Shown in pieces: positions 15,672-63,823 of a DNA stretch of 64,000 bases. A model generated the notes under the pieces. It saw only the letters and a program-made list of their open reading frames with translations. It was not told the DNA's origin and ran no database searches. This DNA comes from Macrocystis pyrifera. Its lineage: Eukaryota > Sar > Phaeophyceae > Laminariales > Laminariaceae. How positions within the stretch are numbered: the first letter of the stretch is position 1; every line of letters starts with the position of its first letter. The stretch lies in assembly GCA_031763025.1 (NCBI GenBank), contig JASSKH010000014.1:9352563-9416562 (forward strand), in the 5' to 3' direction. The position numbers and the translations under genes were made by a program.

Positions 15672-16616
15672 TCACGAGAGTTTACCCTCTGCTTCTCCCG
15701 CCCGCTTTAACGTCCCGCCCGCCGTACTATTGCCACCTCCACCGCCCCCTTTCTTGCCCGAGAAAGCAAGCCTTTTTATGCCCTGGGGAAGCCCGATGGA
15801 CAAGAGAGATTTTCCTGTGGTGCCGCCCGTCGGTGCGCCGACCCCACTAGCGCCCCCGCCTCCAGCCCCGCCCAATCCGCCTCCCAGCTGCCGCCCGAAC
15901 AGGAGCAACTTGGCATCATGTTCATCCGCCCGCGAGCGCGCTGCGGCCCCACTACCGCCCGCGACACCAGGACTCCTACCAGCATCCATTCCAGCCAGCT
16001 CAGCGTCAGCAAAGGCTTGGGCGCTAGCGGCTTCCGCTGCGGCCGCCGCTGCCGCCGCGGCCGGGCCTATCGTAATCGGAGAGTTGTCAACCTCGTCCTG
16101 CGAATTACTGTCGGAATCAAAAATATCGCGTTGTCTCGGCGCCATTGTGTCAGTCCGAGGCGAGGCAAACCCCGGCGATGTCACTTGGCGCCTCGACGAG
16201 CCCCACCCGACCCTCCTCCTCGCGCCCCCACCCGGTGTACTTGCTGCACTCCCTCCATCCTCCCTGCAGCCCTCCCCCCCGTGCGGTTCCCGCGCTCCCC
16301 ATTTTCTCTGGGACTTTTGGCGCAGAGCGGGGGATACCGATCGCGACACTGCATTAAGAGTGTCCGTCAGGAACTCGGACGCGAACGGCCGTCCGAAGTT
16401 CTTTCCTAGCGATGTGGGGATTACGCTTCCCGTTGCACCGCTATTTTTACCGCTGGCGGCGTCGTTACGGCCACGGCGCCTGCCGCCGCCGGCCAAGCCG
16501 GCAGCAGATGACGTCGTAGCAGATGCCGAGGACGAGGGGTTCGTGGATACGCCCGATTTTGGCGCGACACGTGTGTTGTTGAGGAAGTTTCCGAGGTTAT
16601 TGAAGTTGCGGCTAAC
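15672..16616 (-). CDS. BLTP2: BLTP2 last exon with stop codon
   Basis: The acceptor CTGATTTCAG opens VSRNFNNLGNFLNNTRVA. The tail is disordered, with poly-Ala and Gly runs. Near the end come DEHDAKLLLFGRQLG and LLSIGLPQGIKRLAFSGKK, echoing the short L-L-x-G ... K-K tail of animal BLTP2. The frame ends at a stop at 15672-15674. A longer ORF on the opposite strand here is an antisense shadow. Confidence 0.9.
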   Translation of the reverse strand, partial: VSRNFNNLGNFLNNTRVAPKSGVSTNPSSSASATTSSAAGLAGGGRRRGRNDAASGKNSGATGSVIPTSLGKNFGRPFASEFLTDTLNAVSRSVSPALRQKSQRKWGAREPHGGEGCREDGGSAASTPGGGARRRVGWGSSRRQVTSPGFASPRTDTMAPRQRDIFDSDSNSQDEVDNSPITIGPAAAAAAAAAEAASAQAFADAELAGMDAGRSPGVAGGSGAAARSRADEHDAKLLLFGRQLGGGLGGAGGGGASGVGAPTGGTTGKSLLSIGLPQGIKRLAFSGKKGGGGGGNSTAGGTLKRAGEAEGKLS

Positions 16617-19600
16617 CTGAAATCAGGGCAATGAAAAATAATTAAGACCCGTAGCCGATCCATCATTGGCGGGGTGGGGCCAGGGGTGGGGGGTTAAGGT
16701 TTCAGAGGCGTGGGAACGACGCTCATGATTCCGCACAGCAGTTCATTTGGAACAGCCTAGGCGCATGAACGCCATGTACTGCGTCTGAAAAACTCGTGTA
16801 TGTGGGATTTTTTTGCCCATCACGGGCGCGTTGACGGTTTTCCGCTGAGGACAACGTTACATCATGCCCGCCACAGAATCATACAATCGACTGTTTTCGT
16901 GATAATGTGAAGAACGTACCGGTATGATTTATGGCAAGGGGGGTCACGACATAACCTGAAAACGTATGTGGTAGATATTGGGAACGCAATTTCACGGTGT
17001 ACTTGACGGTCTAATAACGTCGGCCGACTTTAGTTTTTACGCTCTTGAAGTTGCAACACGCAGACGCTGCACCCACCAAGCTCCAGTCTGATACGACAAG
17101 CATCGACACATAGCTCAGTGCGGACTTAACGCATCATGGGAAGGCCACACATGCGCGCAAACATACACAGTAGACGTGGATTCGCATGCTTACACCACAG
17201 AGTTTGCGTAGTAGCCTATTCCAACCTAGAAGCGTTGCTGTACCACCCGCTACGATGCGTCCCACAACCACAGAGCTTGTGGGAACATTCTAAACTCGTA
17301 ACCATTGCAGTACAAGCTCGACGATTGCCGTGCACACTATGACCAACCTGTGAGAGGATGTCAAGGATTACATCCCTTCTTATCCGTAGCAGAAGCTTCC
17401 GGGGGGTCCACGTTTTGTTGGTGTAGACCATGGGATGCAATTTGAGGTGTACATTGTCCACGTCCTCGAGCTCCATGTAATGGTCTCCCATGTAGGTCAG
17501 AAAAATGTTCACCTGGCTCGTGGCAAGTGAGCAGCAGCGTGAGTAGGAAGTTCCAACACAAGCGTAGCCCGCAAGCGGCAAGGGAACAAGGACGCGGCAC
17601 ACTAAACGCCTCCTCGGCACTGCCTAGAGTACGTCTGACGATCGTTGCGGAGACAATAGGTGTGCACAAATATGGCCGCGGTATATATGAGCCTATCAAT
17701 GGGTGGGAGGCGATCACAAAAGTGGCCTCACGATTGAAAAGCACATTCGTTGACCCGGTCTGACTAAACCCTGATACTTCACAGGCAAGGTCAACACACA
17801 AGCAGTCACGATGGCAAATGGGAATCCTCGATGAAGACATGGTGCTCTCTATTACATCACCAAATATCGGCATCGCCGGCGAATACGCGCACGCCAATTG
17901 CATTATTGTCGCTAAAGGAAACTGACTAAGAATAACTATGAACAACCAATTATAAAACGTTTTGTTTAGGAGACGATATCATAGTCAATTTAGTAGTATC
18001 GTGGGGCAGCAAGAGAAATGTCGCAACACACGTATGTAAATGACGTGGCGACAAAAAACAAGAGCTGAAAATCAAGGAGTCGCTGCAACAGAAAACGTTT
18101 GTGGAGTAATACCCACCCTACGCTCGCACAGCTTACCACGGCGAGTAAGGACAGCCGCAACAGAACCCACCACCAGGGCGGCTGTGTGTGCCTTACCAAC
18201 ACGCCATTCCTTACCTCGCCCAGTCGAAGATGCTTGACCGCCATAGGCTTCTCCATGATACCAGTGTCGTCCTCCCTTACCACAGTTGCCTCCTGTTCGG
18301 CCGAAGACCAAAATCATCGCGTTTAAGGCTTGTGAGTCAACGAGCTGCAAGGCCAAGAGCGAACAAACTCAACCTCGTCCAGTGCTTCCTCGCTAAGAGA
18401 GTCGCAACAAATCATAACAGGTTCCGAACGTTTTCTAACCGCAGCCGCTCGGTTCGGTCGGGTAATGTTTATCGCTGCCGTTTTCAGCACGCGGGGCGAT
18501 TGCTCTAGCTATAGGGAGGCCGAGTCGGACATGGTGCAGCCACTCCGCGGGAACGACCCTTTACCACTAAAAGCGGAGCCAATCGCCCCTCCCTGGCAGG
18601 TGAAGGAGGACCACTCGAAGCGCCAAGGAAGGCAAAACTGCACACACTTTTATTCGCCTATTCCCATCACAAACGGGGCTCAAAACTGTTTGACCTGGGG
18701 TGCTTGCGGGTGTCAACAAATTGCGCTCGTCAATATATACAGGCCGATAGTTAGACGCCGCGCGAACCCTCTCGCAGAGAGCTTCTTGGCAAAAACTACA
18801 TTGAACGTATCGACAGAGGCATGCGAGCACAACGAACGACATCGTAAGGCAAGCAGTCCTCCCTCCGCGGAGGTTGGACAGTACACCCCTGGGCCGTTTG
18901 ACAAGCTAGTGCTACTTGCGCAAATCCGAAACTGCGCGTCCGCCGGTTACGTTCCACCCGCCCATGCAACCCTCGGGTTCCGCGAGAATAACGCCGCACC
19001 TTTGCTGCCGGCTCCGAGTAAGGCGAGGGAATGTTCCTTTCTCCTGTATCCACCGCCGCATCACCTGTAAGCGATAGACCGTATCAACCAAGCGAGGCAT
19101 GTGCGGGTAGACGCAAATAGACGCGAGTCGACGAGGGAAGAAAGGGTTGAGGTATTGTCGCGATAAAAACGCGAGGCACGAACCCTAGTGGAAAGGAAGA
19201 AGGAAGACCCCTTTGTTATGTGACCCCGGGTCTAAGTTGCGATTATAAATAGAGCGGGAAGAGGAAAGAAGGCCGAAGAAGGGAGGGGAAAACTAAACGC
19301 ATGCATTGAACGAAAAGGAAGGATCGTCAAACTGAACAACGAAGAGTACAGCGAGGTCACGAGGCGGAAGATCTTCGGCTCGTCGAAGAGGCGGATCTTC
19401 ACGAAAAGCCATCAAACCCCCCAGCGACAGTGGATGATACCGGAAAAATACCGAACGGGAATCACCGCAATGCGGGTAGGGTAGTCGGAACTGCAAAAAC
19501 AAAAAAATCACCTACGGCACGGACTGCACGAAGTTCTTCGCGCCTCTCTATCCCTGGCATCTGTTGATATCTGCTGACGTACCGACGTGTTTCCCGAATC

Positions 19601-22600
19601 CCTCATCACCACTATAAACCCAGATAGAGTGAATGACGTTACGAGGGCTCACCGACGTCGGAGGCCGAATCCCAATTAGTTGACGGTCCTACGACCATGT
19701 TGCCACCACTCCCAACGCTCGGATCACCGGAGCCTCCCGCACGAGCACCAACGCCCGAATCGGCTATAGGCATTGGCCAACGGAGTCAAACACAGAGCAC
19801 ATGATTGGTGCAGGGGGGCAGTGATTTCTTCGTTCGTTAGGCGTTAGGCGGGGGTAGGGGGGGAATTGAGGTGAACACAAGTAAACCATTGTACGCGTTC
19901 CGCAAAACAAGTGTCGCCGACGTCGGAGAAACAAACAAACGAGGAAAAAACGGGACGCGGGCATCACGAGGCAGAACCATGTCGCAACATACCGAGGAAA
20001 TCGACGTCAGAAGCCGCTTAATTGGGTAGTTAGATTCCCCAATCTTTCTCTCTTCTTGTGCTACGATTCGTCAAAAAACGACAGAAAAAAAAATATATAT
20101 ATATATATATACATATATTAAAATTGTTGAATAATCGCTGAAATTACGTAGCATCTTCGGTTGTGTAAAGCAGCTAAACAAGCAAAAAAAAACGCTCCAA
20201 ACCCCGAAATACGTACGCGGTAATGAAACCTTTGCTTGGGGGAGTTTGAAGTTCATCAACGTTGGCAGCCTTTTCGGGAAACCAAGCACACCAGGCATCT
20301 TCATCTGTCGGGGGACACTCGTATTCATGCTGTGCGCAAGGAGTTACGGTGCATCGAAAATCGGACAACTCAGGCCGAAATGACGCTTTGTCTACCAAAC
20401 TGGGTCTGCATCGGGCAATGTCTCGCATTCATCCAGATCTGCATGTCGAGCGCTGTACTCCGGGGAGATTGTTTGAAATACGCATCCTGAGGTGCTCTAA
20501 ACATCAGCAGTGACGGACACGCCCTTCGGCCGGGAGGATACTCGCACCGCTGTCCTCCCCGCGTCCCGGTACTACTGCGCCGCTCTTTTCAGTGAGGAAA
20601 ATGTGACCCCCATACGCTGAGGGTCGGGTTCTCCACTCACACCAAAATTATATCGACTCCCGCAAATTCCTGTTGCGCTGTTGCCCATCAGCTACAAAAA
20701 AAGGTATCGAACGTTCGCTCACTGGCCGACCAGCACACAAACAAGCGAAATCTCCTCGGCTCTCATCGGGCAACCTGGGCCAAGGAGGCCCGGTGAGCCG
20801 AAAACCGCGAAACAACTGCCACGAGGCACGATATTTCGACACAAGGGGAGGAACAAGCCCCACGAGCTTCAGTCAGGACCATACCCAGTCGTGTGGTCGT
20901 GTAGATCCCTTGAGGGGCTGCGATGGTGCCGTGCCGACAGAGATCTGGTTGTGGCTCATATCGGGAAGCTACAAGACCTTGTCGATTCTTTTTTTACTTG
21001 TGGCAGAGTCATTCCTACATATATCACGAGGAAGCCGCTCATTGGTCTTTGTACCATAAAAAAAAACGGTTTCAAACAAACAACAACAACAACAAAACTC
21101 GGTATTTTACGTAGAATGTCCGACTTACCCCCTCAAGACAAAAACATGATTCCGAGCTCTAACGCAACATACTTGGAGCCGTCACGATACTGAGCGGAGC
21201 GGACCCACCCCGCAGAAGCAAAAAAGCGCGATATCGCATGCAAAGGCAAAGGACCAAGAAAGCGAGTGCATGCATATGCAGCAAACGCCAAAACATCTGA
21301 AAAAAAGAAAACACGCAAGGCGTGATTCGGCGATACGTACCGCCAACTGTGGGCGTCGTCGATCCCTTCGCTTTCCAAGCCCGGCGAAGACGGGTCCTGC
21401 TTAACGCCGACCTCCCCGACTTGGGGAATGTTTTTTTCGACGTCAAGAAGGTCGCCTTAATCTGTCGCGTTCAACCACCGAAGGGGCGGAAGCCAAAGGG
21501 CAGAGGTGGGACGGAGGCCGTGAAACGAACACAGGGTTTGCTACTGATAAAGTTTTCGGCGTTAGTGACGCACTGCCCCGCGCCACTGCCGCTGCTGTCG
21601 GACGCTACAGAAAATACAATGGAGGCATGTTTTGGGAGTGAAGCCTGTTTTCACGTGGAGGCACCAGCAGCACCCCTTGTAGGGGTGTCAGCTTCACTAA
21701 GGAAGTTTCACACTGGCTAGAATAAAAACCCGCTATGGGTATGGGGAATGCGCCAGGGAGGGGGCGGGAGAGAGAGTAGCCACAATCGACCGAACAGAAG
21801 AGTTGGGACGATCGTGTGCCGGCGGCCGTACGAACTTTCGACGAGCCTGAGGCGCACCCCGCCTAATACCCCAACACAACCGCTTCATGTCCCGATGAGC
21901 ATGACTCCCCCCCCGTCCCCTATGCTCCGGGGCAGCCCCTATGCTTCACTTCGCCACGACTCGCCTGCTCTTCTCGCTGCACCGTCGCCGAGTCCGGGCC
22001 CGCCCCGCCACTCGTAAGCGCCGACACGGCGTCAGAAGAGAACGCGGATAGATCAGCAAACAAGGAACGCCGAAGATGCAGCACGAGCGGGAAGATGGCT
22101 GCCTCGAAATGCCGCACCAAGGTCATTTCCCTGGAGGGGGGAGAAGAGCGTGAAAGGGTGGAAGGCAAGGGGTTGTCTCAGCGGGTCCTGCCCGGGGAAA
22201 TCACGGGTGGTACAGTAATATGTTTTACCCCCTCCCTGTCGTCGATGCCGTCAGTATACGCGATGTCCATGAAGTACAACAGCACGGCCGGATTAGCGGC
22301 ATCGAAAGGGTCACAGTTCGAAAACGACGGCATCACGCCGGCAGCGCGCGAAACCAAGAGGCCGCCCATGACGTTGTCGGGCCATGACTGGGCGGCATCG
22401 GTACTCGCTTACCCGATAGGAGATCCCAGCTGTGCCTGAACGTGCACGGTTATCTCTCGGGGAGACCAGCCGCGAAGGTTCCCCTGCGGAATGTCAAATC
22501 ACGCGGCACACGCGCACCGGTGGTGAAGCAGGGTCAACGGACAGAAACGTATCGCGGCGTGGGCATGAACCCCGGCCTGATAGCACCACAGTCCAAGAGG

Positions 22601-28128: not shown

Positions 28129-28165
<37 letters not shown>

Positions 28166-33665: not shown

Positions 33666-33718
<53 letters not shown>

Positions 33719-52981: not shown

Positions 52982-53036
<55 letters not shown>

Positions 53037-53500: not shown

Positions 53501-53539
<39 letters not shown>

Positions 53540-53966: not shown

Positions 53967-54043
<77 letters not shown>

Positions 54044-55777: not shown

Positions 55778-55808
<31 letters not shown>

Positions 55809-57212: not shown

Positions 57213-57254
<42 letters not shown>

Positions 57255-60200
57255 TGGCCTACGATACCTGTCCCCTAAACGACATGCGCACTGAATGCAT
57301 CTTCCGTCCCGCACCGGGTTCATTCGGTCCTCCCAGCGCCCTTCAAAAAGCTGATCGCATCGATGTACCTACTCAAACTCCCTCAAAACACTTCCCCGTC
57401 GGACAGCAAAAACAACAAGTAACCGAGGAAACCGCGTTCGGATACGGGGGAGCGGGATCACTCACACCGAGACACCACACAGACACCGAACCAACCCTGA
57501 AAACAGCGCGCTGACAACCCACACGGGCAGCACTAACTGCAAAGCACACGGTTGCGGTTCGCGGCGGGCTGTCTACATGTATGGGCCACTAAGTGGGAGC
57601 AGGATGCCAAATGGGATTAAAATCCGGGTGGGGTCAGGTCCTGGTGGGATCGGGTGTTCAGACTACACTAAAATAGTGTAGGTGTGGCCTGTTGGGGTTG
57701 GTCCGACCATGCCTTTCGCCCTAAAGCCACGAAGCGCTGATGATATCGACATCGTGTGGGCTGCAATTATTGCTGCAGTTCAAGGGTTGCAATTAGCCAA
57801 GCTTCAACAACAACAACAACAACAACACGCTGACAAACCGCCCCCCCCATCTCAGCACCTTCATTATTTGGAGGTGCATCGCCGGGGTCCAATCGCCGTC
57901 CACCCCCTCCGCAAGGATGTCGACTACTCGAAACCCCGAGCCCGGCGCAAGGCCGTCCCTGCTGCCCGTCGTTGCGCGCGGCGCGCCGGTCATTTGCAAC
58001 ACTGCGAAACGCGACACGCGCAATATTCTGCGCGGAAGACAAGAGGTTGGTGAGCGCATGCAGGAGGGCAAGGGGGGGTGTACTCATTGTCATGTATGGC
58101 CGCAGGGGAAGGGGGGGGGGGGGGGGGTTCGACGGGGTTGCACCGCAGTACCTGGAAATCATGGCCGTTTTTCTTCAAAGAGATGTAGTCGGTGGTTTAG
58201 CCCGAATTTCGCCCGACAAAGGCTCTATGGGTAGGGTGAGGGTCGGTGTTGAGGGTTTAGGGTAGGGTTTATGTTATGGGCCTAGAAACTGTCCCACGCT
58301 AACTCCAAGCAGTATGTCCAAAACAAAATTGTGGGTGCAATCGGATAGGGTTGAGCGCACCTTCGCTCAGATAGAGCCCGCCGTCCACTATTATTATGTA
58401 TATCTCGGAGACTCAGGTGTGGCGAGGGGGCATCGGAAAAAAAAAAAAAAAAAAAAAAAAAAACAAGTTATCTTCCATGCTAAAAGCTCAAGCTTGGGCC
58501 ACGCGCGGAAACCCCTGCGAGTGCGTCATCCTGGCCATGTATAGCCAGAAATGCCCTTGCCACGGGACTGTGCAGCGAAGGCATGATCAGCCTCACCTAC
58601 CACCACGCTACGCCTTCGGCACATATAGAAACCCGCATGTCGCTGAAACCACGTGCCGGGCAATAAACGGCAACCGAAAAGTATGGAACGATCCAAAACA
58701 CAACAGCAAGTTGGGACAACGACTCGAGCTGACCCTGGCCGCTTACTTTTGGCGGCTTTCCCGGCGATACTTCGTGCGGCCCGCAGACGCGGACGAGCGA
58801 AAAGGCGAGGGACCGTGCCCATGCCCCCGCGTTGCGCCCCCTTGAGAACAGTCATCATCGCCCTCTCCTTCGCCCCTGCCCTCGCCATCTTCGGCTCTGT
58901 CCGCAGGCAATCCGCTCCGGCCCGCGGATGCCTCGACATCCTCCGGACGCGTGCTCAAACTCGGTATGAATCGAGGGTACGTTCCGCGGCGACTGTAGTA
59001 GCCGTACCCACCGCCGCCGCCGCGCCTACTGTTGCGGTCGAGAGTGTGTCCTGTACACGACACAGACACTCCCGATATCGCGCAGCTCAAGGACGGTAAG
59101 ACGCCACCACCACCGCTACCGCCGCCACCACCGCCACCGCTACCACTGCCGCCGCTACTTCCGCTTCCCCTGCCACCGCTGCAGCCGCCGCCGGAGCTGT
59201 CACCCGCAACGACCACGCTGAGGTAAAACTCGCGCGCCTCGACAAAATGGCACGACCAAGCCCCGCTGACGACGGACTTCAACGAACGTCCCCTCGCGGC
59301 ACCTCCCGCAGATCCGGGGGCTCCGCGCCCCAACCTCCCTTTCCCGCCGGCCACGCCAAGGTCGCCTACGCCCGCTCGCACGGAGCTTCGGAAGCGCCGC
59401 AGCCACCGGACGACATCTCCGTACTCCATGTCCCCGCAGCATGCGGTCGCCTGGAAAGGGAACTCGACCCGCACATCCTTCGCAGACAACGCGAAAACCC
59501 CCGGGATCTCCACGCCCCCACCTGGAGAATCCCACGCAATGGGCGACGAGAGTCCACCACCGCCGCGCCCGCCCCCGTCAACGCCACCACCACCCCCCCA
59601 CTGCTACCACCCCCACTGCTACCACCGCCACCACCACCACCACCGCTACCACCGGCACTATGGAGCTCCGCCCACCTTCCGGGGCGCCATAGTAAACCCG
59701 CCGCCTCCAAGCGGTGGTCGAAAACCCTGTTTGCGAGGCAGGCTGCGGCGCGAGAACGCTCTCCAACGGGGGGAAGTCCCAACGATTCCGCCGGGAAGCC
59801 TCTCGCGGGTCCCCCTGCCCCCACTCGCGCACCAGACCCTGCTGGGGGTTCCGCCGCTGGAGGGCACGGTGAGCGTGGTGTTGGTGTCGGCGCGAGAGGC
59901 GACCAGTAGTTCAGTGGGTCGTAGCCAAGACCAGATCTAGAGACGTGGGGCCCAAGGAGTCCCGCGTCTTTCAGGCACGATATTATCTGCGCGGCGGGAG
60001 GGTTTTGCCGGGGAAAGGAAGGGCGGGAAGAGAGCGCGACACGCTGAAAGGAGCGACATTGGTATATTTTTGTGCGCTGCCATATCGAGCACTCTTCCAC
60101 GCATGCTGCGAACGGGATTTACGCAAACTCTTTACGCAGCTGCGCGGTTCCGAGCGCGACAAGACGCTCAGACGCGGTGACGGAAACTGGTTCAAGCGCA

Positions 60201-63200
60201 CAACCAACGGGAGCCGAAGAAAATCCACGACACGCTTTTTTCGCTCAGTCTCTTGCGCAGACCTCGCCGTGCTAGCCCGAACCATACCCGCCCGCCCCAC
60301 CCTCCTTCCCCTGACTACCAGCATTGTCTTGAAAAGTATGCCTGCCCATACGGCGTATCTCACCATAGCGCCGGATTTTCCGGCCAAAAAAAACAACGCT
60401 GGACTCCACTCCGCCCACAAGCCCTCAACCGAAACGCCATCTTCTTCCACCCCAGCCGCTTCCACCCCCGGCGTTCGACCAACCGAAGCCGCCCCGCCGC
60501 CTGCCCCTGCCCCCTTTGAACCATCCGACGCGGATGCAACCGGAAACGAGGGGGGTTCTGCCATCCGGAACGACAGCTTGCGGACTGCGAGCCACCGCAG
60601 GCGGTGGGTCTCCCCTCGTGGCGCGCCCAGCAGCGGCGGTGGCGGCCGACTTGCGCCGCCACCCGTCTCGGATGACCCCACTGCCCCATCCTCAGTGTTG
60701 CCGGAGCAGCACACACCTTCCGCGGTGACGGTCGGTGCCTCGACAACCGCTGCGGGCGGTACCGGTGTCGGTGCCGGTGACGGTGACGGTGCACACGCAG
60801 AAGAAGAGTGCGCCTCTTCACAGCAACCTGCACCGATTCCGGGTAGGCCGGATGATGAGGCAATATCGCTCAAGGCGGAGAACGACGGTGAACCTCCAGC
60901 ACCGCCGTCGACGGTTTCGGCGTTACCCAATGTCGATGTCATCGGGCATGACCCCGCGGGAGTGACAGGCGGCGGCGGCGGCGGCGGCGGCGATTGCGAG
61001 GGTGTCGGCAAGGGCGGCACCACCCTCGCGCCGGGATCTTTCATTTCCAGGTGACCCTCCAGCCACTTCGCCGTGACGGTCACCGTGGGCGCGGACGCCC
61101 CTTCCCGGGTTCTCGCGCTGAAACCGGCGCTCCTGCCGCTCGGCATAACCACACTCGACGGCGAACAAACCCGAACCGCGACGCGAGGGACCGTCAGCCG
61201 AATTAGGGTCGCCCAGCCCCCCTGCAAGTCAGCGTCGGCACCAGCGTTGTCGGATGCGAAGGAGTCGGTACGGCTGACCCCGGCCGCGGAAGCAGGAACA
61301 TTGCGTCGACCTCCGACCCCGATACCGTCGCCGACGCCAAAACCGTTGCTGCTACTGCTGCTATTGATATAGTTGTCACTGTTAACCGGGCCACGCGCCG
61401 CCACGCTCAGCCCCCCAGCTTGGCCGCCTCCGCTCGCGGAACGCGTTGGTCGATCGTGTTGCACATCACCACCATCAACACCGCCGCCGCCACTACCGAT
61501 ATCGCTACCGCTGCCGTCGCCGCCACTGTCGCCGTCACCAGCGACCACGATGCCGGCGAGGTCCACCTCAAACACCACAACATACGAAAACCGACGGCGA
61601 AATCCGTCGGTCTTGCGGCACCAGGATAGACCTTCCGTCGGTAACACAGATGGTGGGCGGGCGGGTACCCGAGGCGGTGGCACCGCTGCCACCGCTGCCA
61701 CCGCCGCCGCCGCCGATGACGACGAGGTCACCCGGTGCAACCGCGGTGATGACTGGGGGCGGGGTGAAGACTTTCTAGCCCAGCCACCAGCGGGTACTCT
61801 CCCCTGGTTTACCGTCGACGGCGACCCAACAACTTCCTGCAACTCCCGCCTCTCCTGGTTCTGCGGCGTCTGGGGGGAGGCCGGGCTCGTCCGGGGAAGG
61901 GGTTTCAATGCCCCAGGAGACGGCAACAGCGTGGTCAGTTCTGCGAGCCATAGAAGCACCGTCAGCCCCTCCCGGGAAACGGTGAAGCGCCCGAACGCCA
62001 GACGGCCGGAGGCGGAGACCTGAGGCGAGGGCCCAGCATGCACAGCAGCGGAGGGGAGGGAAAGACGGGGGGGGGGGGGGAGGCGTGATTAAGTGGGAAA
62101 GGTAAATTGGGGGATAACGGGGTCAGCTGCAATACTTTACATTGCAGCGGTCTGAGCGTGTGGTCGAAGTTGCTTATTGAAAAACAAATGCGCGAATGAA
62201 GAGCGTAGAGGCGAGCGCCGGACGGGCGGAGGCGGTGGCAGGCGGGCAAGGGGGGGCTTTTGCGGTTGCACGCGGTCTCGCAATATCGTACGGACCATGG
62301 TGTATTCGCGACCCAGCGAGCAACCTACACCTCTACACCTCTAGCCCTGAACTCAGCAGGAGCCCGGGGACGGCATCGCTGCACATCGGTCACGACATAT
62401 GGACCCATGTATACACATATATAACAAAGAGACACAACGAGTGATGTAATGTGCGTCGTAGTCGGTGACGGTCCCAGGTCTCTGATTTCGGTTACATGTT
62501 ACAGTTCGAGTGAGAACTGCATGCCTACACATCAGTAGCAAACCCTTGGCCGTGCCAGGATGGACCCAGATGCCACAGGACGCCTTGGCTATCACCGCCG
62601 CAACGGTAGGAGGGGGGCAATAGAGCCTGCTCTCCTTATAATTACGCGCTGAGGCCCTTGGGCGTGGTCGACAAAGCACCGCGTGGACAGCGCTTCGCGA
62701 GGTAACTTCACACGACCAAGGGAATTTTGATTGGCGTAGAGAACACTCGGATCAACACGCGATCAGTTCGAAGCGCACGGGCGGGGAAAGGAGTTCCTAC
62801 TCTGCGAACCGGGGCGTGCAAAAACAAAGGCCATGACGAGTGAAACTTGACAATGCGTGCAATGAGCTCTTCGAGAAAGTTTTCCCCCCAAACGCGGGAA
62901 GTCGCTTGCGACGTTCAGGCTGCGTGAAAATCTGAGTCTCGAGTTACGGGTACGAAGGCAACTCCGCTCGTAGCCACAGTCCTGTCAGGGGTGTAACAAG
63001 CAACGCCAAACCTTAACGTTGGTCTCCTCTCAACAGGACAACCGCGTGTAAGAGCGACGGGCCTGCCTACGGCAAAAGGAAGAAAAACGAAAAAAAAAAA
63101 AAAAAAAAAAAAACAGACCAAAACCGAACAGCTCCAGGTAAAGACGCCATTAGGAGTTTACGGTTTGACCCCTCAATAGCCGCCCCCTACACTAAAACCA

Positions 63201-63823
63201 TGATAGCAAGGACAAAACAGGTATTGACGCACCCGAAAACAGCGGACCCGTCTCCAGCTACAGGGTAGCATTATTTGGGGACAAGATGTACTGGTAATAA
63301 ATGTTAAAAAAAAAGCATCAGCTGTGGGATCGAAGATTTCATCGAACCCAAATATTCGCAAGCTGCGGTATGTTCCTTCGATCGCGCGTACTACATACCT
63401 GGTACAGGTTTTGTAAGACTTCATGAAGGCTATTTGTTCCTAATCGACGGCAACAAAAGGTCACAGGGTTTATATAGGCCCGCCTGAGGGAAAAAGACCA
63501 ACAACTCTCACCTCCACCGCTCCTCCCACGTCCCCAGCCTCCGCCTCGGCGCTGCAGGAAAGCTTTCCGAGGTGAACCGGCACACACGTCCGCGTCGCCG
63601 CCTCCCCGCTCCCGCCCCCCCCTCCCTCCACCCCTCGGGACCACTGCGGCGTATTTGCGCCCGCGTTATTCAAGCCAGAGGAGGGCGGCGGGTAGGAAGC
63701 AGGGGCCCCAGCTGATGGCGTGGACGCGGAGCGCTGGTGGCGTTCACCGTCATCTCCCGCGGCGATGTTGGAGTAACTTCCGGCGACAAGAGCGACGCTG
63801 GACCACTTGACCTTGGCGCTCAC
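15672..63823 (-). CDS. BLTP2: Bridge-like lipid transfer protein BLTP2/SABRE/Hobbit/FMP27 homologue, 41 exons assembled, 5' partial
   Basis: The spliced minus-strand product is a giant RBG-type lipid transfer protein. Such proteins form a long hydrophobic groove that moves phospholipid between the ER and other membranes, usually the plasma membrane. Seen in sequence: family landmarks in the right order, including VRVEFPFQ (exon 4), ADDPLEAW (exon 11), PPLAWWDTAR (exon 15, the GFWDK region), FLELPTLR joined to CTISISW (exons 16/17), VDVDAGVQWLP (exon 27), VRHFEAAIFPLVLHL (exon 35), and VNIFLTYMGD with NKTWTP (exon 40). Splice phases match at all but three joints (exons 14/15, 30/31, 34/35). 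Coding length in the window is about 12.3 kb, some 4,100 residues, against roughly 2,200-2,700 usual. The excess is Gly/Ser/Ala/Pro/acidic insertions between conserved strands. The N-terminal anchor exon is not in the window. Family identity is firm; single exon ends vary in certainty. Confidence 0.9.
16617..17347 (-). other. Last BLTP2 intron, nothing else seen
   Basis: A 731-base intron between exons 40 and 41 with no repeat family recognised. Confidence 0.5.
17348..17512 (-). CDS. BLTP2: BLTP2 exon 40 (NKTWTP block)
   Basis: The exon encodes VNIFLTYMGDHYMELEDV, VHLKLHPMVYTNKTWTP and RKLLLRIRRDVILDIL. This equals the last groove strands and the N-x-T-W-T-W helix of the family. The acceptor is CACGAGCCAG and the donor TCACAG/GTTGGT. 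Phase is 0 at both ends. Confidence 0.92.
17513..18214 (-). other. BLTP2 intron 39, nothing else seen
   Basis: About 0.7 kb with no recognised repeat or nested gene. Confidence 0.45.
18215..18292 (-). CDS. BLTP2: BLTP2 exon 39
   Basis: This is a 26-codon exon between TCGGCCGAACAG and GGGCGAG/GTAAGG. It encodes VVREDDTGIMEKPMAVKHLR. Its end joins exon 40 as LRLGEVNIFLTYMGD, matching the I-K-I-x-x-V-x-L-x-V-S-Y-K-G strand of animal BLTP2. Confidence 0.85.
19000..19064 (-). CDS. BLTP2: BLTP2 exon 38
   Basis: The acceptor TCTATCGCTTACAG is strong. The exon encodes DAAVDTGERNIPSPYSEPAA and ends at donor GCAAAG/GTGCGG in phase 0, as exon 39 needs. Confidence 0.65.
19065..20229 (-). other. BLTP2 intron 37, with AT tract
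   Basis: About 1.2 kb. It holds an (AT)n run with a flanking A tract at about 20088-20120 and nothing else I recognise. Confidence 0.45.
20230..20405 (-). CDS. BLTP2: BLTP2 exon 37 (linker)
   Basis: The acceptor TTGCCCGATGCAG is followed by SLVDKASFRPELSDFRCTVT, then an acidic and Pro stretch ending VDELQTPPSK. Phase 2 in and 1 out fit exons 36 and 38. There is no family landmark here. Confidence 0.55.
20406..21340 (-). other. BLTP2 intron 36
   Basis: About 0.9 kb with a (CAA)n patch near 21080. A 170-residue plus-strand ORF crosses it, but I cannot assign it. Confidence 0.4.
21341..21455 (-). CDS. BLTP2: BLTP2 exon 36 (linker)
   Basis: The exon encodes DLLDVEKNIPQVGEVGVKQD and LESEGIDDAHSW, an acidic linker where relatives carry an acidic stretch after the E-H-F block. 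The donor TTGGCG/GTACGT is good. The acceptor CAGATTAAG is weak. Confidence 0.6.
22012..22130 (-). CDS. BLTP2: BLTP2 exon 35 (EHF-like block)
   Basis: The acceptor TCTCCCCCCTCCAG is strong. The product EMTLVRHFEAAIFPLVLHL aligns directly with the V-K-E-H-F-E-V-N-V-V-P-L block of animal BLTP2. FADLSAFSSDAVSALT follows. The donor TTACGA/GTGGCG is weak and was picked for phase. Confidence 0.85.
22229..22387 (-). CDS. BLTP2: BLTP2 exon 34
   Basis: The exon runs SWPDNVMGGLLVSRAAGV, then DAANPAVLLYFMDIAYTDG and IDDREG. It stands where relatives have V-L-R-x then a strand before the E-H-F block. The donor GAGGGG/GTAAAA lies in a run of five G. It ends in phase 0, whereas exon 35 needs phase 2. Confidence 0.85.
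22388..24329 (-). other. BLTP2 intron 33, possible extra exon near 23.05-23.23 kb
   Basis: About 1.9 kb. A segment reading ADALEVIKPLMRQDLERRSD ends at donor GACCAG/GTGGGC and could be an optional in-frame exon. Its acceptor is not clear, so it is left out of the model. No repeat family is seen. Confidence 0.4.
24330..24463 (-). CDS. BLTP2: BLTP2 exon 33
   Basis: The exon encodes VLHLKRLKLELWRDESSSPF and LRAEVRRITADVMVYDDASG. Relatives have I-S-L-R-I-x-x-x-x-W followed by A-E-I-x-x-x-x-Y-D, so the match is close. The acceptor is TACGTGTGTCAG and the donor CTGCAG/GTGACG. Confidence 0.9.
24464..25912 (-). other. BLTP2 intron 32
   Basis: About 1.4 kb. It contains a CA/AC-rich patch at 24590-24680 and a 159-residue plus-strand ORF without recognised motifs. 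Confidence 0.4.
25913..25995 (-). CDS. BLTP2: BLTP2 exon 32
   Basis: This 83-base exon lies between TGCCGCGCAG and ACCTAG/GTGAGA. It encodes SLSASHRLRRAVRLLKHKLQ, matching the basic helix A-S-L-R-M-A-L-Q-K of plant relatives. Its phases, 2 in and 1 out, are exactly those needed by exons 31 and 33. Confidence 0.85.
26583..26608. repeat. (AT)n microsatellite
   Basis: A run of alternating A and T in the intron between exons 31 and 32. Confidence 0.85.
26676..26783. mobile_element. MITE family M1, copy 1
   Basis: About 108 bp. Ends read TACGGGGGACCATAGTAGAT and CACTATGGTCCCCGGTAA, which are inverted copies. It is intronic. Confidence 0.8.
26905..27160. mobile_element. GATC-rich TIR element, copy 1
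   Basis: Begins TTCACACATGGGACAGATCA and ends GATCTGCCCAATGTGCGG, imperfect inverted ends. It shares GATCTAGCTCAT-like words, CTGCACAACAGCTTATCA and GGTTAGGATCTAGAT with the copy at 36.2 kb. It is intronic. Confidence 0.6.
27488..27612. repeat. (ATC/CAT)n microsatellite
   Basis: A degenerate CAT/ATC tract just beyond the donor of exon 31. Confidence 0.85.
27633..27853 (-). CDS. BLTP2: BLTP2 exon 31
   Basis: The acceptor GTGATGTCAG opens LRRLRHSIAEASRGLGDASA. Later come SLSLRRHYKVTPQSDRD and LAEWATVVEEEAFASSI. This is the charged coiled region before the C-terminal groove strands. The donor CATCAG/GTGAGG is strong. Confidence 0.75.
27890..28118 (-). mobile_element. Dispersed retroposon-like repeat, copy b (near full length)
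   Basis: On the minus strand it runs from ATGCAAGAAAGTCCGCCTC through CGCGCTTGGTGCAAGCA, GTCGGTGAAAACCCGACG and GGCCATGCATGACATGAG to a C-rich tail. About 220 bp. A 33-G run (28129-28162) adjoins the other end. Confidence 0.75.
28129..28162. repeat. Poly-G/poly-C homopolymer
   Basis: A run of about 33 G next to retroposon copy b. Confidence 0.9.
28655..28964 (-). CDS. BLTP2: BLTP2 exon 30
   Basis: The exon starts ATLNSLQLKLVATVVSEVLA and SPLPPLG, equal to the helix in plant relatives that reads T-S-x-Q-F-x-V-M-x-D-V-L. The rest is Ala/Thr linker. The donor TTGGAG/GTAAAG is strong but leaves phase 1, which the start of exon 31 does not accept. At least one small exon between them is probably missing. 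Confidence 0.8.
29171..29311 (-). CDS. BLTP2: BLTP2 exon 29
   Basis: This 47-codon exon in phase 0 encodes ELEWHWRGWYVVRP, then LRELCQALPPLPMFRDLDAM. It fills the gap between the F-K-P block and the next helix. The acceptor is TTAGTCGCAG and the donor ATGAAG/GTAGGT. Confidence 0.75.
29344..29457. mobile_element. MITE family M1, copy 2
   Basis: About 114 bp with inverted ends CTATTACAGGGGACCATAG and CCATGGTCCCCCGTAATAG. It lies in the intron before exon 29. Confidence 0.85.
30248..30399 (-). CDS. BLTP2: BLTP2 exon 28
   Basis: The acceptor GTCTTTTCTGGAGCAG is strong. After a linker the exon encodes SSLLASTRAVFKPVVDRIDS and LELQ. The F-K-P string matches the V-F-K-P-C block of plant relatives. 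The donor CTTCAG/GTGTGG keeps phase 0. Confidence 0.85.
30621..31370 (-). CDS. BLTP2: BLTP2 exon 27 (VDVDAGVQWL block)
   Basis: The acceptor TTCTTTTCGGACCGATTGCAG is among the best in the window. The exon opens VDVDAGVQWLPDSAF, nearly identical to the D-V-D-x-x-A-G-V-Q-W-L signature of plant and fungal relatives. About 230 residues of Ser/Pro/Arg/Gly disorder follow. The donor ATCGG/GTGAGT is excellent. The intron before it is the longest, about 5.9 kb. Confidence 0.9.
32021..32134. mobile_element. MITE family M1, copy 3
   Basis: Ends GCTACTACGGGCGTCCATAG and CTATGGACCCCTGTTATAGC are inverted and somewhat diverged. Confidence 0.8.
32891..33312. repeat. Large inverted repeat with coding-like arms
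   Basis: The left arm is about 32891-33061, the right arm about 33141-33312, and the loop about 80 bases. Arms agree at roughly nine in ten bases by eye. Each arm, read outward-in, can encode an acidic stretch such as KSADDGG and ENAAVENSG. The left arm contains a tandem 23-base duplication (33038-33083). Confidence 0.8.
33655..33717. repeat. (GA)n microsatellite
   Basis: About 30 GA units, nearly perfect. Confidence 0.95.
34320..35350. repeat. CTCTAGAG/CTCCAGAG palindrome array
   Basis: Within about 1 kb there are at least seven exact CTCTAGAG cores, usually CCTCTAGAGG, and many one-base variants (CTCTGGAGG, CTCCAGAGG, CTCTAGAAA). Spacing is irregular. A second motif, TTTTCCCTC(A/G)GGTATGGT, appears twice direct and once inverted (34935, 35092, 35283). 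Confidence 0.75.
35363..35489 (-). mobile_element. Dispersed retroposon-like repeat, copy c
   Basis: A truncated copy, minus orientation, from CGCCTGGTCGGTGAAAACCC to GGCCATGATAATGAGTACAC. It then runs into a tail of about 30 C (plus-strand G run 35363-35392). It adjoins the CTCTAGAG array. Confidence 0.75.
35763..35874. mobile_element. MITE family M1, copy 4
   Basis: Ends CTATTACGGGGGACCATAG and CTATGGACCCCCGCAATAG. The interior carries TACGGTACGCACAAAAACC as in copies 2 and 6. Confidence 0.85.
36211..36496. mobile_element. GATC-rich TIR element, copy 2
   Basis: Inverted ends TTCCACACCTCGGACGTATC and TGATCTATCCGAGGTGTGAA. The interior is rich in GATC words and shares blocks with copy 1. 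Too small to encode its own enzyme. Confidence 0.65.
37320..37533 (-). CDS. BLTP2: BLTP2 exon 26
   Basis: The acceptor TTTCCCCGTCGCACAG is very strong. Reading on from exon 25, the product is FLGAETAKATLLFSMEQGG, then ASVALRHQQTLQARRFMIEF and GCVAAYGP. This matches the strand, loop and A-A-P string of relatives just before D-V-D. The donor CCAA/GTCCGT is weak but alone gives the phase exon 27 needs. Confidence 0.8.
37534..39380 (-). other. BLTP2 intron 25
   Basis: About 1.8 kb. It holds M1 MITE copy 5 and a C-run at 38825-38839. A GGTTAGG word at about 37970 is too short to call. Confidence 0.45.
38074..38184. mobile_element. MITE family M1, copy 5
   Basis: Ends CTATTACGGGGGTCCATAG and AACTATGGACCCCCGTTAG. 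The interior has AAAAACCTATATATTTGCC. Confidence 0.85.
39381..39530 (-). CDS. BLTP2: BLTP2 exon 25
   Basis: This is a 50-codon exon in phase 0. An acidic/Ser linker leads to VMHKLFSIELRRTQIQ, the strand that begins the I-E-L-x-x-P-Q block of plant relatives. The donor is ATCCAG/GTGCGT. The acceptor CACAGCAAG is modest but keeps phase. Confidence 0.8.
40165..40370 (-). mobile_element. tRNA-like SINE unit 1
   Basis: On the minus strand it has an A-box-like TAGTGGTTAGCCTC and a B-box-like GGGTTCGATTCTCC (about 40228-40297). A non-tRNA part with GAGACACCGACTGCGGAGAG follows. The arms do not fold into a sound tRNA. Confidence 0.6.
40371..40600 (-). mobile_element. tRNA-like SINE unit 2
   Basis: A diverged repeat of unit 1. 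It has TAGTGGTTAGTCTCGAATAC, a decayed B box, then GAGACACTGGCTGCGGAGAG. Both units are followed on the plus strand by AACAGGCGAGAT(A/G)CGC, so the pair looks like a tandem duplication. Confidence 0.6.
40890..40999. mobile_element. MITE family M1, copy 6
   Basis: Ends TACTACGGGATATCATAGTA and TACTATGGTCCCCCGTAATA. Confidence 0.85.
41610..41676 (-). CDS. BLTP2: BLTP2 exon 24
   Basis: This 67-base exon has acceptor TGTGCAGAG and donor GTCAAG/GTGAGC. Joined to exon 23 it gives TLKLSGMDVAIAALPGLSK. Relatives have a strand, then N-R-D-x-x-F, then a short basic tail here. Phase chooses the second of two adjacent AGs as the acceptor. Confidence 0.8.
41877..41986. mobile_element. MITE family M1, copy 7
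   Basis: Ends CTATTACGGAGGACCATAG and CTATGGCCCCCCGTAATAA. It sits in the intron between exons 23 and 24. Confidence 0.85.
42583..43456 (-). CDS. BLTP2: BLTP2 exon 23
   Basis: This exon is reached across a 58-base intron (acceptor CCCTTGCTAG). It is mostly charged and low complexity, with HLDAITRAAWLGSKQA, poly-Ala and poly-Pro. It ends in the conserved strand FLYRVVFDGLNVLITLKL. The donor AGCTCAG/GTGAGTG is excellent. Confidence 0.75.
43515..43955 (-). CDS. BLTP2: BLTP2 exon 22 (acidic/Ser insert)
   Basis: This exon follows an intron of 94 bases. It has a Gly stretch, then VMVSDTSDVDESEDDDDDDD, a Ser run from a TCG/GCT-type repeat, and GIDLTADFLAGRDDN. It is a disordered insertion between groove strands. 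The donor GCGGCG/GTGTGC is fair; phases fit. Confidence 0.6.
44050..44399 (-). CDS. BLTP2: BLTP2 exon 21
   Basis: The acceptor GCCGGCCGCGCAG opens VVIPTTSLAVTTVHGLRLRA, then KVEARLCD and LLLRLRRVALEQ. Relatives have a W-S-V-T strand, a second strand with L-M, then a third. An Arg/Ser tract and a Gly-rich tail follow. The donor GGGCG/GTGTAA gives phase 1. Confidence 0.8.
44672..44850 (-). CDS. BLTP2: BLTP2 exon 20
   Basis: This exon encodes LGPLCLSEVDVSVYDTAPA, then GVRLSIRGGVAVSLGFSVE. Relatives show a strand, a short loop and a strand with R-G at this spot. The acceptor is CCTGTGGAGCAG and the donor GGGCAG/GTGGGG. Phase 0 in and 2 out fit both neighbours. Confidence 0.85.
45731..45999 (-). 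CDS. BLTP2: BLTP2 exon 19
   Basis: The acceptor TTCGTTTTCTCGCAG is very strong. The exon reads SPALVPLWKRKRGLDWGG, then a Ser-rich basic stretch (VFSRLMRDAQGSQAKAL) and PPEGFADM. It occupies the position where relatives have a W-x-x-x-x-x-P-x-x-R-G-K-L-F loop. The donor ATG/GTGGGT keeps phase 0. Confidence 0.75.
46037..46245 (-). mobile_element. Dispersed retroposon-like repeat, copy d (long, no C tail)
   Basis: Minus orientation, from ATGCAAGCTAGTCCGCCCC through ACTTCGCGCTTGGTGCATG and ATCGGTGAAAACCCGACG to GGCCATGCATGATA. It keeps the head as copy b does but lacks the C-rich end. Intronic. Confidence 0.75.
47045..47144 (-). CDS. BLTP2: BLTP2 exon 18
   Basis: The acceptor GGTACTGGGACAG opens VLVAIKLERLRNTHGW, fitting the strand that follows the R-A-P block in relatives. 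The donor CGAA/GTATCA is chosen for phase 1 and is uncertain. Confidence 0.6.
47562..47673 (-). CDS. BLTP2: BLTP2 exon 17
   Basis: The acceptor is GCGATTCACTCAG. The exon encodes CTISISWHTLGGPSPDHWVY followed by VRPPAP. Relatives have a W strand, then G-N-P-x-x-H, then R-A-P at the same place. The donor ACG/GTAGAT is fair and gives phase 0, which exon 18 needs. Confidence 0.85.
47674..48665 (-). other. BLTP2 GC-AG intron 16
   Basis: About 1 kb. It contains AACCAACCAA-type patches (48225-48300 and 48610-48655) and a short duplicated word CACGCAAGTAAAA(C/T)(A/G)TACGAGG at 48031 and 48070. Confidence 0.5.
48666..49344 (-). CDS. BLTP2: BLTP2 exon 16 (with poly-Gly insert; GC donor)
   Basis: The join with exon 15 gives HGKFDATVFG, VLAAVAAAAMASDPSG, as in relatives where a short strand then D-P follow the H-G motif. 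A long Gly/Ser insert follows. The end is conserved: LKELQEGKVLAATFAVLRV, GRLALEVTGVWAGG and APFLELPTLR. The frame can join exon 17 only through a GC donor (CTCAG/GCGAGG). Confidence 0.85.
49853..50108 (-). CDS. BLTP2: BLTP2 exon 15 (GFWDK/WWD motif)
   Basis: This is the most diagnostic exon. AYLDLSVCLERPRFEYSPAH and TYALVDMANAGKLLMP lead to PPLAWWDTARCMVHGKFD. The W-W-D-x-x-R-x-x-x-H-G string is the signature of the FMP27 GFWDK region. The donor GGAG/GTGCGA matches exon 16 in phase. The acceptor used is CCGTCGCAG. A start at 50236 would match the phase of exon 14 instead. Confidence 0.9.
50422..50801 (-). CDS. BLTP2: BLTP2 exon 14 (R-D-Y-P-like block)
   Basis: The acceptor is CCGAAAACAG. 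The exon opens CADIRAGMRQFPLPLFSC, equivalent to the block in relatives where a strand runs through R-x-R-D-Y-P to an aromatic. It continues MGAWARAPLELAGVKHAVIA. The donor GCCTG/GTATGT is good but leaves phase 1, which does not fit the best start of exon 15. A missing micro-exon or another donor is likely. Confidence 0.75.
50931..50974. repeat. (CTG)n microsatellite
   Basis: About 14 CTG units in the intron between exons 13 and 14. Confidence 0.95.
51510..51583 (-). CDS. BLTP2: BLTP2 exon 13
   Basis: This 74-base exon lies between TTTTAACAG and CCGTGAG/GTACTG. It encodes PPVGTDFGAIARINFSV. The phases, 0 in and 2 out, match both neighbours. Confidence 0.8.
52111..52324 (-). CDS. BLTP2: BLTP2 exon 12
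   Basis: Acceptor GCTTGTACTGACAG and donor CTGCTG/GTGAGA are both strong. The join with exon 11 gives DARCYLEHVREAFGDRG, which matches the helix in relatives where an I-Q-R-S-R-x-x-Y-G motif follows the charged helix. The remainder is linker ending TSGEALCRGLL. Confidence 0.85.
52984..53036. repeat. Poly-C homopolymer
   Basis: About 53 C in the intron just after exon 11. Length in the assembly may not be exact. Confidence 0.9.
53080..53316 (-). CDS. BLTP2: BLTP2 exon 11 (DDPLEAW block)
   Basis: This exon encodes WVRARFLTIEIADDPLEAWF and then a basic and acidic helix (FRRALRRRHRS, AEAEESMERGEREADAVDA). Animal, plant and fungal relatives have a strand ending in D-D-P-F-E followed by a charged helix at the same place. 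The acceptor is GGCATGAACAG and the donor GCCAG/GTGGGG. A run of about 53 C lies just beyond the donor, in the intron. Confidence 0.85.
53502..53539. repeat. Poly-C homopolymer
   Basis: About 38 C in the intron between exons 10 and 11. Confidence 0.9.
53967..54041. repeat. (GA)n microsatellite
   Basis: About 37 GA units, perfect by eye. Confidence 0.95.
54166..54267 (-). CDS. BLTP2: BLTP2 exon 10
   Basis: The acceptor CCCGCACTAG is followed by PIVDAISSFLRVQYQVDDVD. The donor CAGCG/GTAAAA gives phase 2, matching exon 11. A shorter form ending at the internal donor TACCAG/GTAGAC is possible, but it would break the frame into exon 11. Confidence 0.65.
54334..54421 (-). CDS. BLTP2: BLTP2 exon 9
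   Basis: The exon is 88 bases between acceptor GAGGGCAG and donor CGGCAG/GTGGGT. It encodes ALGQRLDCLALQTKALAVAF. Phases match exon 8 and exon 10. The intron that follows is only about 66 bases. Confidence 0.65.
54643..55136 (-). CDS. BLTP2: BLTP2 exon 8
   Basis: The acceptor GGTTTTGCTTGCAG is strong. The exon opens FLGTTIDLDGDRLASVASVN, which continues the strand begun at the end of exon 7. A long Ser/Ala/Gly-rich stretch with an embedded helix (FHELKARAMAVAAAAG) follows. The donor TCTG/GTGTAAG gives phase 1 as exon 9 requires. Confidence 0.65.
55522..55890 (-). CDS. BLTP2: BLTP2 exon 7 (with poly-Ala from a GCT repeat)
   Basis: The acceptor CCAATCTCTGCAG opens the strand LHVRDVAIRGRW. A Gly/Ala linker follows, in which a (GCT)n microsatellite encodes a run of alanines. 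Then come GIRMKLRVGDFSSESVGEHF and DVAFVWGAGVPYK. The donor ACAA/GTATAG was picked for phase 2 and is only fair. Confidence 0.7.
55777..55806. repeat. (CAG)n microsatellite inside exon 7
   Basis: Ten CAG units on the plus strand, read as GCT on the coding strand, give a poly-Ala run. Confidence 0.9.
55945..56335. repeat. ATCGT pentamer array (degenerate)
   Basis: About 390 bases built from ATCGT/ACCGT/ATCGC pentamers, all within intron 6. The regular ends near 55950-56040 are the purest. Confidence 0.85.
56446..56717 (-). CDS. BLTP2: BLTP2 exon 6
   Basis: The acceptor ATATATCTTCGCAG and the very good donor CACAG/GTGAGC bound a phase 0 to 2 exon. It starts PVREVTLSVWKVMLHLRRA, an amphipathic strand and helix. 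It continues through a Ser/Pro linker to EDPAALEYWVRAWQ. Both joints keep the frame open. Confidence 0.75.
57137..57162. repeat. Poly-C homopolymer
   Basis: About 26 C directly before retroposon copy e. Confidence 0.9.
57163..57252 (+). mobile_element. Dispersed retroposon-like repeat, copy e (short, C-tailed)
   Basis: Plus orientation. GACTACGGCCATGCATGAGA, then GAGTACATCTCTCTTATC and GAGTACACCCCT, then about 38 C. Only the 3' part of the family remains. Confidence 0.65.
57807..57827. repeat. (CAA)n microsatellite
   Basis: Seven CAA units in the intron after exon 5. Confidence 0.9.
57859..58027 (-). CDS. BLTP2: BLTP2 exon 5
   Basis: Strong acceptor CTTGTCTTCCGCGCAG and donor ATGAAG/GTGCTG bound this exon. 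It encodes ILRVSRFAVLQMTGA and then FRVVDILAEGVDGDWTPAM, ending HLQIMK. Phases agree with exons 4 and 6. The alternation of strands and the W-x-P motif suit the RBG groove, but I cannot align it to a named landmark. Confidence 0.75.
58069..58133 (-). mobile_element. Dispersed retroposon-like repeat, copy f (short)
   Basis: The plus strand shows a G run, TGTACTCATTGTCATGTATG, GCCGC and a second G run. It is the 3' piece of the family in minus orientation, just upstream of the acceptor of exon 5. Confidence 0.55.
58437..58463. repeat. Poly-A tract
   Basis: About 27 A in intron 4. Confidence 0.9.
59008..59521 (-). CDS. BLTP2: BLTP2 exon 4 (VEFPFQ block)
   Basis: The acceptor ATTCTCCAG is clear. 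The exon carries GVFALSAKDVRVEFPFQ, then VVRWLRRFRSS and CHFVEAREFYLSVVV. Animal BLTP2 has a VEFPYQ block followed by a W-L pair at the same place. A Gly/Ser-rich run encoded by a GGT/GGC repeat follows, then LPSLSCAISGVSVSCTG. The donor GGTGG/GTACGG gives phase 2, which fits exon 5. Confidence 0.8.
59825..59936 (-). CDS. BLTP2: BLTP2 exon 3 (short strand exon, tentative 3' end)
   Basis: The acceptor is GTCTCTAG, and the exon reads PTELLVASRADTNTTLTVP. This matches the strand pair that follows the W-S-P block in relatives. Phase 0 agrees with exon 2. The donor GCGA/GTGGGG was chosen because it gives phase 1, which exon 4 needs. Other donors are possible. Confidence 0.5.
60319..62019 (-). CDS. 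BLTP2: BLTP2 exon 2 (large, includes W-S-P block)
   Basis: Acceptor CGCCTCAG and donor ATGCTG/GTAGTC bound 567 codons in phase 0. Conserved parts are LAFGRFTVSREGLTVLLWL at the start, FSYVVVFEVDLAGIVV, LIRLTVPRVAVRV, and LRWLAVRKLSFRM followed near the end by SVEGLWAEWSPALFFLAG. The last block matches the point in animal BLTP2 where a W-S-P motif follows two strands. Between them are Ser, Gly, Pro and Asp rich linkers of low complexity. The open frame runs on past the donor to 59983, but that tail is Arg/Ser rich and looks non-coding. Confidence 0.85.
62020..63511 (-). other. First BLTP2 intron in window
   Basis: About 1.5 kb with a G run at 62070-62081 and an A tract at 63090-63113. Nothing else is recognised. 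Confidence 0.5.
63512..63823 (-). CDS. BLTP2: BLTP2 exon 1 of window (N-terminal strands)
   Basis: The exon is bounded by acceptor CCCGCATAG and donor GAG/GTGAGA, and is 312 bases in phase 0 at both ends. It encodes VKWSSVALVAGSYSN, a Ser/Pro/Gly linker, then VPVHLGKLSCSAEAEAG. This fits the alternating short strands near the family's N terminus. The acceptor side could also be read as a donor (ATAG/GTGAGC), so the upstream edge is less sure. The expected membrane anchor must lie beyond 64 kb. Confidence 0.65.

What the first reader, a model, noticed from the sequence alone, without database searches (positions are those of the whole stretch)
15672..63823. One 48-kb gene for a BLTP2/SABRE-type lipid bridge explains most of the window
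No single ORF would reveal it, but 41 exons read on the minus strand place family landmarks in order, with phases that chain. About 4,100 residues is unusually long for this family.
Basis: partly seen in the sequence, partly recalled or inferred. Interest (0 to 1): 0.75.

Follow-up and report, generated by a model that had tools for sequence, protein, structure and literature searches.

The report
Giant-kelp BLTP2/SABRE lipid-bridge gene
The window holds most of one very long, intron-rich giant-kelp gene for a known kind of protein thought to bridge two membranes and carry lipids between them; the family is ancient and widespread, so the gene is expected, while its exact exons, length and start remain unproven.

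Summary
The core claim holds: a minus-strand gene of the Hobbit/FMP27/BLTP2/SABRE family runs through most of the window. One exon (17516-17348) matches Pfam Hobbit (PF10344) above its cut-off (39.5 bits against 24.5, E 1.3e-10). It is the only match reported in the window's own 537-Mb, 223-contig genome, figures equal to those published for giant kelp. The WWD exon 32 kb upstream lands on profile 1240-1257, below cut-off. Profiles from recalled relatives rank three six-frame hits first, all minus-strand and in family order. Coding signal is far stronger on minus than on plus or simulated DNA.

Not established: 41 exons, 48 kb, about 4,100 residues. Of 48 minus-frame pieces covering 15661-63800, one passes the Hobbit cut-off; spliced alignment to SABRE did no better than shuffles. 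Two of my predicted exons are a foldback repeat, and much of the model is low-complexity. Coding signal continues past the right edge; a weakly supported candidate start lies 5.2 kb outside. An expected orthologue: new member of a known kind.

The parts
15672..16616 (-). Last exon with the stop codon; low-complexity C-terminal tail
   Evidence: Open frame 15672-16622; exon in both models; the exon 17516-17348 joins it in phase 0
17348..17516 (-). C-terminal conserved exon, QVNIFLTYMGDHYMELEDVDNVHLKLHPMVYTNKTWTPRKLLLRIRRDVILDILSQ
   Evidence: Pfam Hobbit PF10344, 39.5 bits, cut-off 24.5, E 1.3e-10, profile 2275-2333; only match reported in the own genome
21950..22130 (-). Exon with HFEAAIFPLVLHLRRSLF, resembling the '(F)EVxxYPLxIHLT' landmark
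   Evidence: Third-ranked six-frame hit of both recalled-relative profiles, E 1.9 and 1.2; no Hobbit hit in Pfam
22260..22387 (-). Candidate exon before it (MGGLLVSRAAG...AVLLYFMDI), by eye
   Evidence: Splice sites and phase fit; no family hit
24330..24449 (-). Candidate exon RLKLELWRDESSSPFLRAEVRRITADVMVYDDASGSLDLQ, by eye
   Evidence: no family hit
30537..31370 (-). Exon starting VDVDAGVQWLPDSAF, then a low-complexity insert
   Evidence: 9 of 13 identical to the recalled plant stretch TDVDPGAGLQWLP, E 0.45-1.2; no Pfam hit
39381..39587 (-). Exon ending VMHKLFSIELRRTQIQ, by eye like the plant HFMVNVIEPQFNL stretch
   Evidence: no Pfam hit
42583..43456 (-). Low-complexity exon ending GFLYRVVFDGLNVLITLKL
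   Evidence: no Pfam hit
43990..44378 (-). Predicted exon
   Evidence: codon score 42.8
44672..44810 (-). Predicted exon
   Evidence: codon score 14.6
48655..49344 (-). Predicted exon following the WWD exon (AMASDPSG..., Gly-rich insert)
   Evidence: codon score 98.2
49853..49985 (-). WWD landmark exon, GVPPLAWWDTARCMVHGKF
   Evidence: Hobbit profile 1240-1257, 7.8-9.7 bits, E 0.13-0.48, below cut-off; not reported in the long blind piece; recalled plant fragment E 0.002-0.003 over six frames, 1.1e-4 against the model
54449..55136 (-). Predicted exon, N-terminal half
   Evidence: codon score 57.3
58747..59450 (-). Predicted exon, N-terminal half
   Evidence: codon score 71.5
59522..59856 (-). 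Predicted exon, N-terminal half
   Evidence: codon score 39.1
60129..62019 (-). Largest predicted exon, N-terminal half
   Evidence: codon score 164.9; Pfam none
63512..63823 (-). Right-most predicted exon of the window; starts at an acceptor, so the gene goes on to the right
   Evidence: codon score 35.7; upstream exons outside the window

Best explanation
The window carries all but the 5' end of one giant-kelp (Macrocystis pyrifera) gene for the Hobbit/BLTP2/SABRE/FMP27 bridge-like lipid transfer protein. It is read on the minus strand from beyond the right edge to a stop at 15672, in short conserved exons and long low-complexity exons separated by repeat-rich introns. By family knowledge the product would be held in the ER membrane by an N-terminal helix, form a rod of repeating beta-groove domains and touch the plasma membrane with its C-terminal end, letting phospholipids (phosphatidylethanolamine in yeast and human) move between the two. 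Shown here: family membership of the 3' end, strand, order of three landmarks, coding signal. Inferred: a single transcript, exon boundaries, groove, membrane partners, cargo and the organism's name.
For: Pfam Hobbit 39.5 bits on exon 17516-17348, the only match reported in the own genome, 20 of 23 candidates scored. WWD exon at the right profile place and best hit of a recalled plant fragment that itself matches PF10344. Three best six-frame hits minus-strand and collinear with two recalled-relative profiles. Minus-strand coding score 1057 against 142 on plus and 36-88 simulated. A+T skew positive in 22 of 24 bins.
Against: One of 48 blind minus-frame pieces passes the Hobbit cut-off; the WWD exon stays below it. 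A hand-shortened whole model hits nothing. Spliced alignment to recalled SABRE is no better than shuffled queries. Some recalled fragments hit best at wrong places: S4 at 11.1 kb, E 0.077, in one of three settings; S3 at 27.8-23.2 kb, E 0.016, in the model; S6 at 25.6 kb with BLOSUM62. The N-terminus is not confirmed.
Confidence: 0.85

Rival explanations
1. Two or more genes: a 3' gene with the Hobbit C-terminus and one or more unrelated intron-rich genes to the right, joined only by the exon model.
For: Significant Pfam evidence exists only at 17.5 kb. The stretch 31.4-42.6 kb has few predicted exons, and the only two bins of negative A+T skew, 32,001-36,000, fall there.
Against: The WWD landmark at 49.9 kb belongs to the same family, at an earlier profile position that does not overlap the C-terminal hit. 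Order and strand agree. No other family passes its cut-off in the 48 minus-frame pieces.
Confidence: 0.1
2. A decaying or dead copy of the gene, inflated by repeats.
For: The interior is hardly recognisable by profile and repeats are many.
Against: The best-conserved exon is intact and in phase with the last exon. Coding frames are strong. No second copy was reported in the genome. Loss of sequence likeness with kept structure is described for parts of this superfamily (PMC7613979, passages).
Confidence: 0.04

Closest known systems
BLTP2/KIAA0100 (human), Hobbit (fly), Fmp27/Hob2 (yeast); Pfam PF10344
   Same: C-terminal block at profile 2275-2333 above cut-off; WWD motif at profile 1240-1257 below cut-off; landmark order
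   Different: Interior mostly below detection; long low-complexity inserts predicted; profile length 2,372 against 4,128 predicted residues in the window alone
SABRE / KINKY POLLEN (land plants), same family
   Same: WWD exon is the best six-frame hit of a recalled plant fragment
   Different: The C-terminal exon looks by eye nearer to the animal NxTW form than to the plant one; not tested by a tree
VPS13, ATG2, Tweek/BLTP1 (other groove bridges)
   Same: Would work alike, by family knowledge
   Different: None of them was listed at E up to 10 in the 48 minus-frame pieces of 15661-63800

Membership tests
Hobbit/FMP27/BLTP2/SABRE (PF10344) | Match to the curated family profile above its cut-off | tested here: met
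   39.5 bits trimmed exon, 34.2 in a blind piece, 36.9 in the genome search; cut-off 24.5. One exon only.
Hobbit/FMP27/BLTP2/SABRE (PF10344) | WWD...HG block in mid-protein | tested here: inconclusive
   Right profile place 1240-1257 but 7.8-9.7 bits, below cut-off; best hit of the recalled plant fragment, E 0.002-0.003
Hobbit/FMP27/BLTP2/SABRE (PF10344) | Landmarks in family order on one strand | tested here: met
   Top three six-frame hits of two recalled-relative profiles are minus-strand and collinear; contrary best hits of single fragments exist
Hobbit/FMP27/BLTP2/SABRE (PF10344) | N-terminal ER transmembrane helix and first groove domain | tested here: inconclusive
   Candidate exons outside the window, at 69237-69102 and 68350-68144 in extended coordinates; no Hobbit hit, mixed shuffles
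Hobbit/FMP27/BLTP2/SABRE (PF10344) | Continuous repeating beta-groove rod | not testable with these tools
Hobbit/FMP27/BLTP2/SABRE (PF10344) | C-terminal membrane-binding helix; lipid transfer | not tested
   Needs structure or biochemistry
VPS13 / ATG2 / Tweek | Match to their own Pfam families | tested here: not met
   None listed at E up to 10 in 48 minus-frame pieces; short exons could be missed

The most novel reading that the evidence does not exclude
The kelp protein is a record-size Hobbit: an ordinary groove carrying a thousand or more extra residues of disordered, low-complexity loops, which would change what it docks to at ER-plasma-membrane contacts of a wall-building multicellular alga.
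Probability: 0.25. Interest if true: 0.35.

Novelty: new member of a known kind. Interest (0 to 1): 0.22.

Why it matters
It places the BLTP2/SABRE lipid bridge in giant kelp. That is expected if, as Levine 2022 infers (PMC7613979, passages), the last eukaryotic common ancestor had one protein of each bridge family. SABRE acts in cell expansion and division in plants (PMC7987345, abstract opening in a search listing), so a brown-algal copy would let that role be tested in an independent multicellular lineage. Practically, the exon model trained here missed the best-conserved exon and favoured low-complexity ones, so automatic gene models of such loci deserve checking.

Tried and rejected
Pfam scan of a hand-shortened model (2,801 aa, several exons left out): no family. 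Spliced alignment of recalled SABRE to the minus strand: real 236.7 against 12 shuffles (mean 226.5, max 237.7) and 109.2 (mean 111.7, max 116.6); 21 and 27 of 40 shuffles reached the real score. No support; each exon can restart cheaply in that scoring, so it is also a poor test. Solved structures: no Hobbit relative with recalled queries or a window piece. Viral contigs: 43 stretches matched a peptide pattern of the C-terminal exon, none encodes a relative. N-terminus: recalled human 250 aa over the own genome, best E 6.4, elsewhere; recalled N-terminal queries against 63-82 kb, best E 0.044, on the wrong strand. Exons 32893-33075 and 33125-33323 rejected as arms of an inverted repeat. Sub-cut-off Pfam rows such as DMSP_lyase and RCR rejected as chance. 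Brown-algal literature on this family: searches listed none among the 15 and 12 papers shown, of 1,025 and 1,916 matching; not proof of absence. The published kelp gene models were not looked at.

Full report
What was checked. The finding says that one 48-kb minus-strand gene of the BLTP2/SABRE family, in 41 exons and about 4,100 residues, explains most of the window.

Source. The genome search places the window at C194:9352563-9416562 of a genome of 537,376,219 bases in 223 contigs. Both figures equal the published Macrocystis pyrifera assembly (537 Mb; 223 in its table; PMC10498591, passages). An intronic repeat of the window also occurs in L001, a contig of a Flavimaricola bin; bins named in that style, and Flavimaricola, appear in a bull-kelp metagenome paper (PMC9238374, passages). 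The organism's name is my inference.

Coding signal. Scores: 1057 nats on minus; 142 on plus, or 341.5 under the minus-trained background; 73.6, 36.5, 72.4, 88.1 and 88.4 on five simulated sequences. A+T skew is positive in 22 of 24 two-kilobase bins from 16,001 on, as for T-rich sense introns of a minus-strand transcript.

Family. A Pfam scan of the three minus frames of 15661-63800 in 48 pieces, stops read through, gives one match above a family cut-off: Hobbit, PF10344, at 17.5 kb, 34.2 bits. The trimmed exon gives 39.5 bits, E 1.3e-10, profile 2275-2333, cut-off 24.5. In the whole own genome this is the only match reported, 36.9 bits, with 20 of 23 candidates scored, and the exon peptide finds only itself. 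The exon ends in phase 0 and joins the last open frame in phase.

Second landmark. GVPPLAWWDTARCMVHGKF at 49.9 kb falls on Hobbit profile 1240-1257 with 7.8-9.7 bits, below cut-off; the long blind piece did not report it.

Order. A profile of recalled plant and animal sequences, run over both strands, ranks first 49.9 kb (columns 2-18), 17.4 kb (993-1049) and 22.1 kb (915-947), all minus and in order, with E 0.08, 0.12 and 1.9; the fourth, E 2.4, is on plus. With a fuller recalled human sequence and 103.6 kb of DNA the same three lead (E 0.031, 3.1e-4, 1.2). Further likenesses at 42.6, 39.4, 31.4, 24.4 and 22.3 kb were picked by eye; none gave a Hobbit hit in Pfam.

Results against. The shortened whole model hit no family. 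Spliced alignment to recalled SABRE did no better than shuffles. Single fragments sometimes hit best at wrong places: S4 at 11.1 kb (E 0.077 in one of three settings); S3 in the model at 27.8-23.2 kb (E 0.016); S6 at 25.7 kb with BLOSUM62 (E 0.30-0.45), though at 17.5 kb with BLOSUM45 (E 0.043), where 1 of 100 shuffles reached its score. S2 found nothing in the model. So membership of the interior rests on the landmarks at and around it, on strand and on coding signal.

Extent. The right-most exon in the window starts at an acceptor. Further exons are predicted outside, the strongest near at 64648-65275 (70.9 nats); A+T skew is 0.19 and 0.24 to 68 kb, near zero to 72 kb, then negative. At 69237 in extended coordinates an ATG opens a hydrophobic stretch; its donor at 69102 joins in phase an exon 68350-68144. 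Against it: 27 of 559 M-starting frames, itself included, are about as hydrophobic or more; Pfam gives no Hobbit hit; end-free alignment to recalled human beats 497 of 500 shuffles but to plant only 80 of 500, and the part after the helix shows nothing (213 and 351 of 500 shuffles reach it). If it is the start, the gene spans 53,566 bases. It is a lead only.

Length. The predictions give 4,128 aa, or 4,265 aa with nine favoured exons, two exons left of the gene included. By a lax entropy rule 3,484 of those 4,265 residues lie in low-complexity windows. Some predicted exons are homopolymer runs, for instance 52984-53153 over a 54-nt C run; two are a foldback repeat; the best-conserved exon has a negative codon score. 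So 'about 4,100 residues' has a large error both ways. Length change by disordered loops is described for the related Tweek family (PMC7613979, passages).

How it works. Inferred from the family: an ER-anchored rod of beta-groove domains that passes phospholipids to the plasma membrane; yeast Fmp27 and human BLTP2 sustain plasma-membrane phosphatidylethanolamine (PMC12270902, passages; PMC12066543, passages). Nothing in the window tests this.

Verdict. An expected orthologue of an ancient family, in an unusually bulky gene.

Noticed in passing
26678-26785, 29344-29457, 32020-32132, 35763-35874, 38071-38186, 40885-40999, 41877-41986: Seven copies of a roughly 106-nt element with long terminal inverted repeats, in the introns. 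In the own genome 40 of 1,462 first-look candidates were scored; all 40 hold a copy 98-100% identical over at least 105 of 106 bases, so it looks recently active.
   Followed up: partly
L001 1-8000: A contig of a bacterial bin (Flavimaricola sp.) looks chimeric: its left part carries the kelp element, its right part frames that look by eye like bacterial ribose-phosphate pyrophosphokinase and ATP synthase beta.
   Followed up: partly
32895-33305: 167-nt inverted repeat, 94% complementary, 77-nt loop; it mimics two coding exons.
   Followed up: no
27925-28127, 35406-35486, 46047-46249, 4809-4855: Second dispersed repeat family sharing CGTCGGGTTTTCACCGA.
   Followed up: no
11877-12203: Six copies of a 54-bp tandem repeat; long open frames cross it on the plus strand without a Pfam match.
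   Followed up: partly
52983-53036, 53498-53539, 53968-54041, 55956-56177, 57209-57252: Long C, GA and ATCGT tracts within the gene's span, some counted as exons by the model.
   Followed up: no
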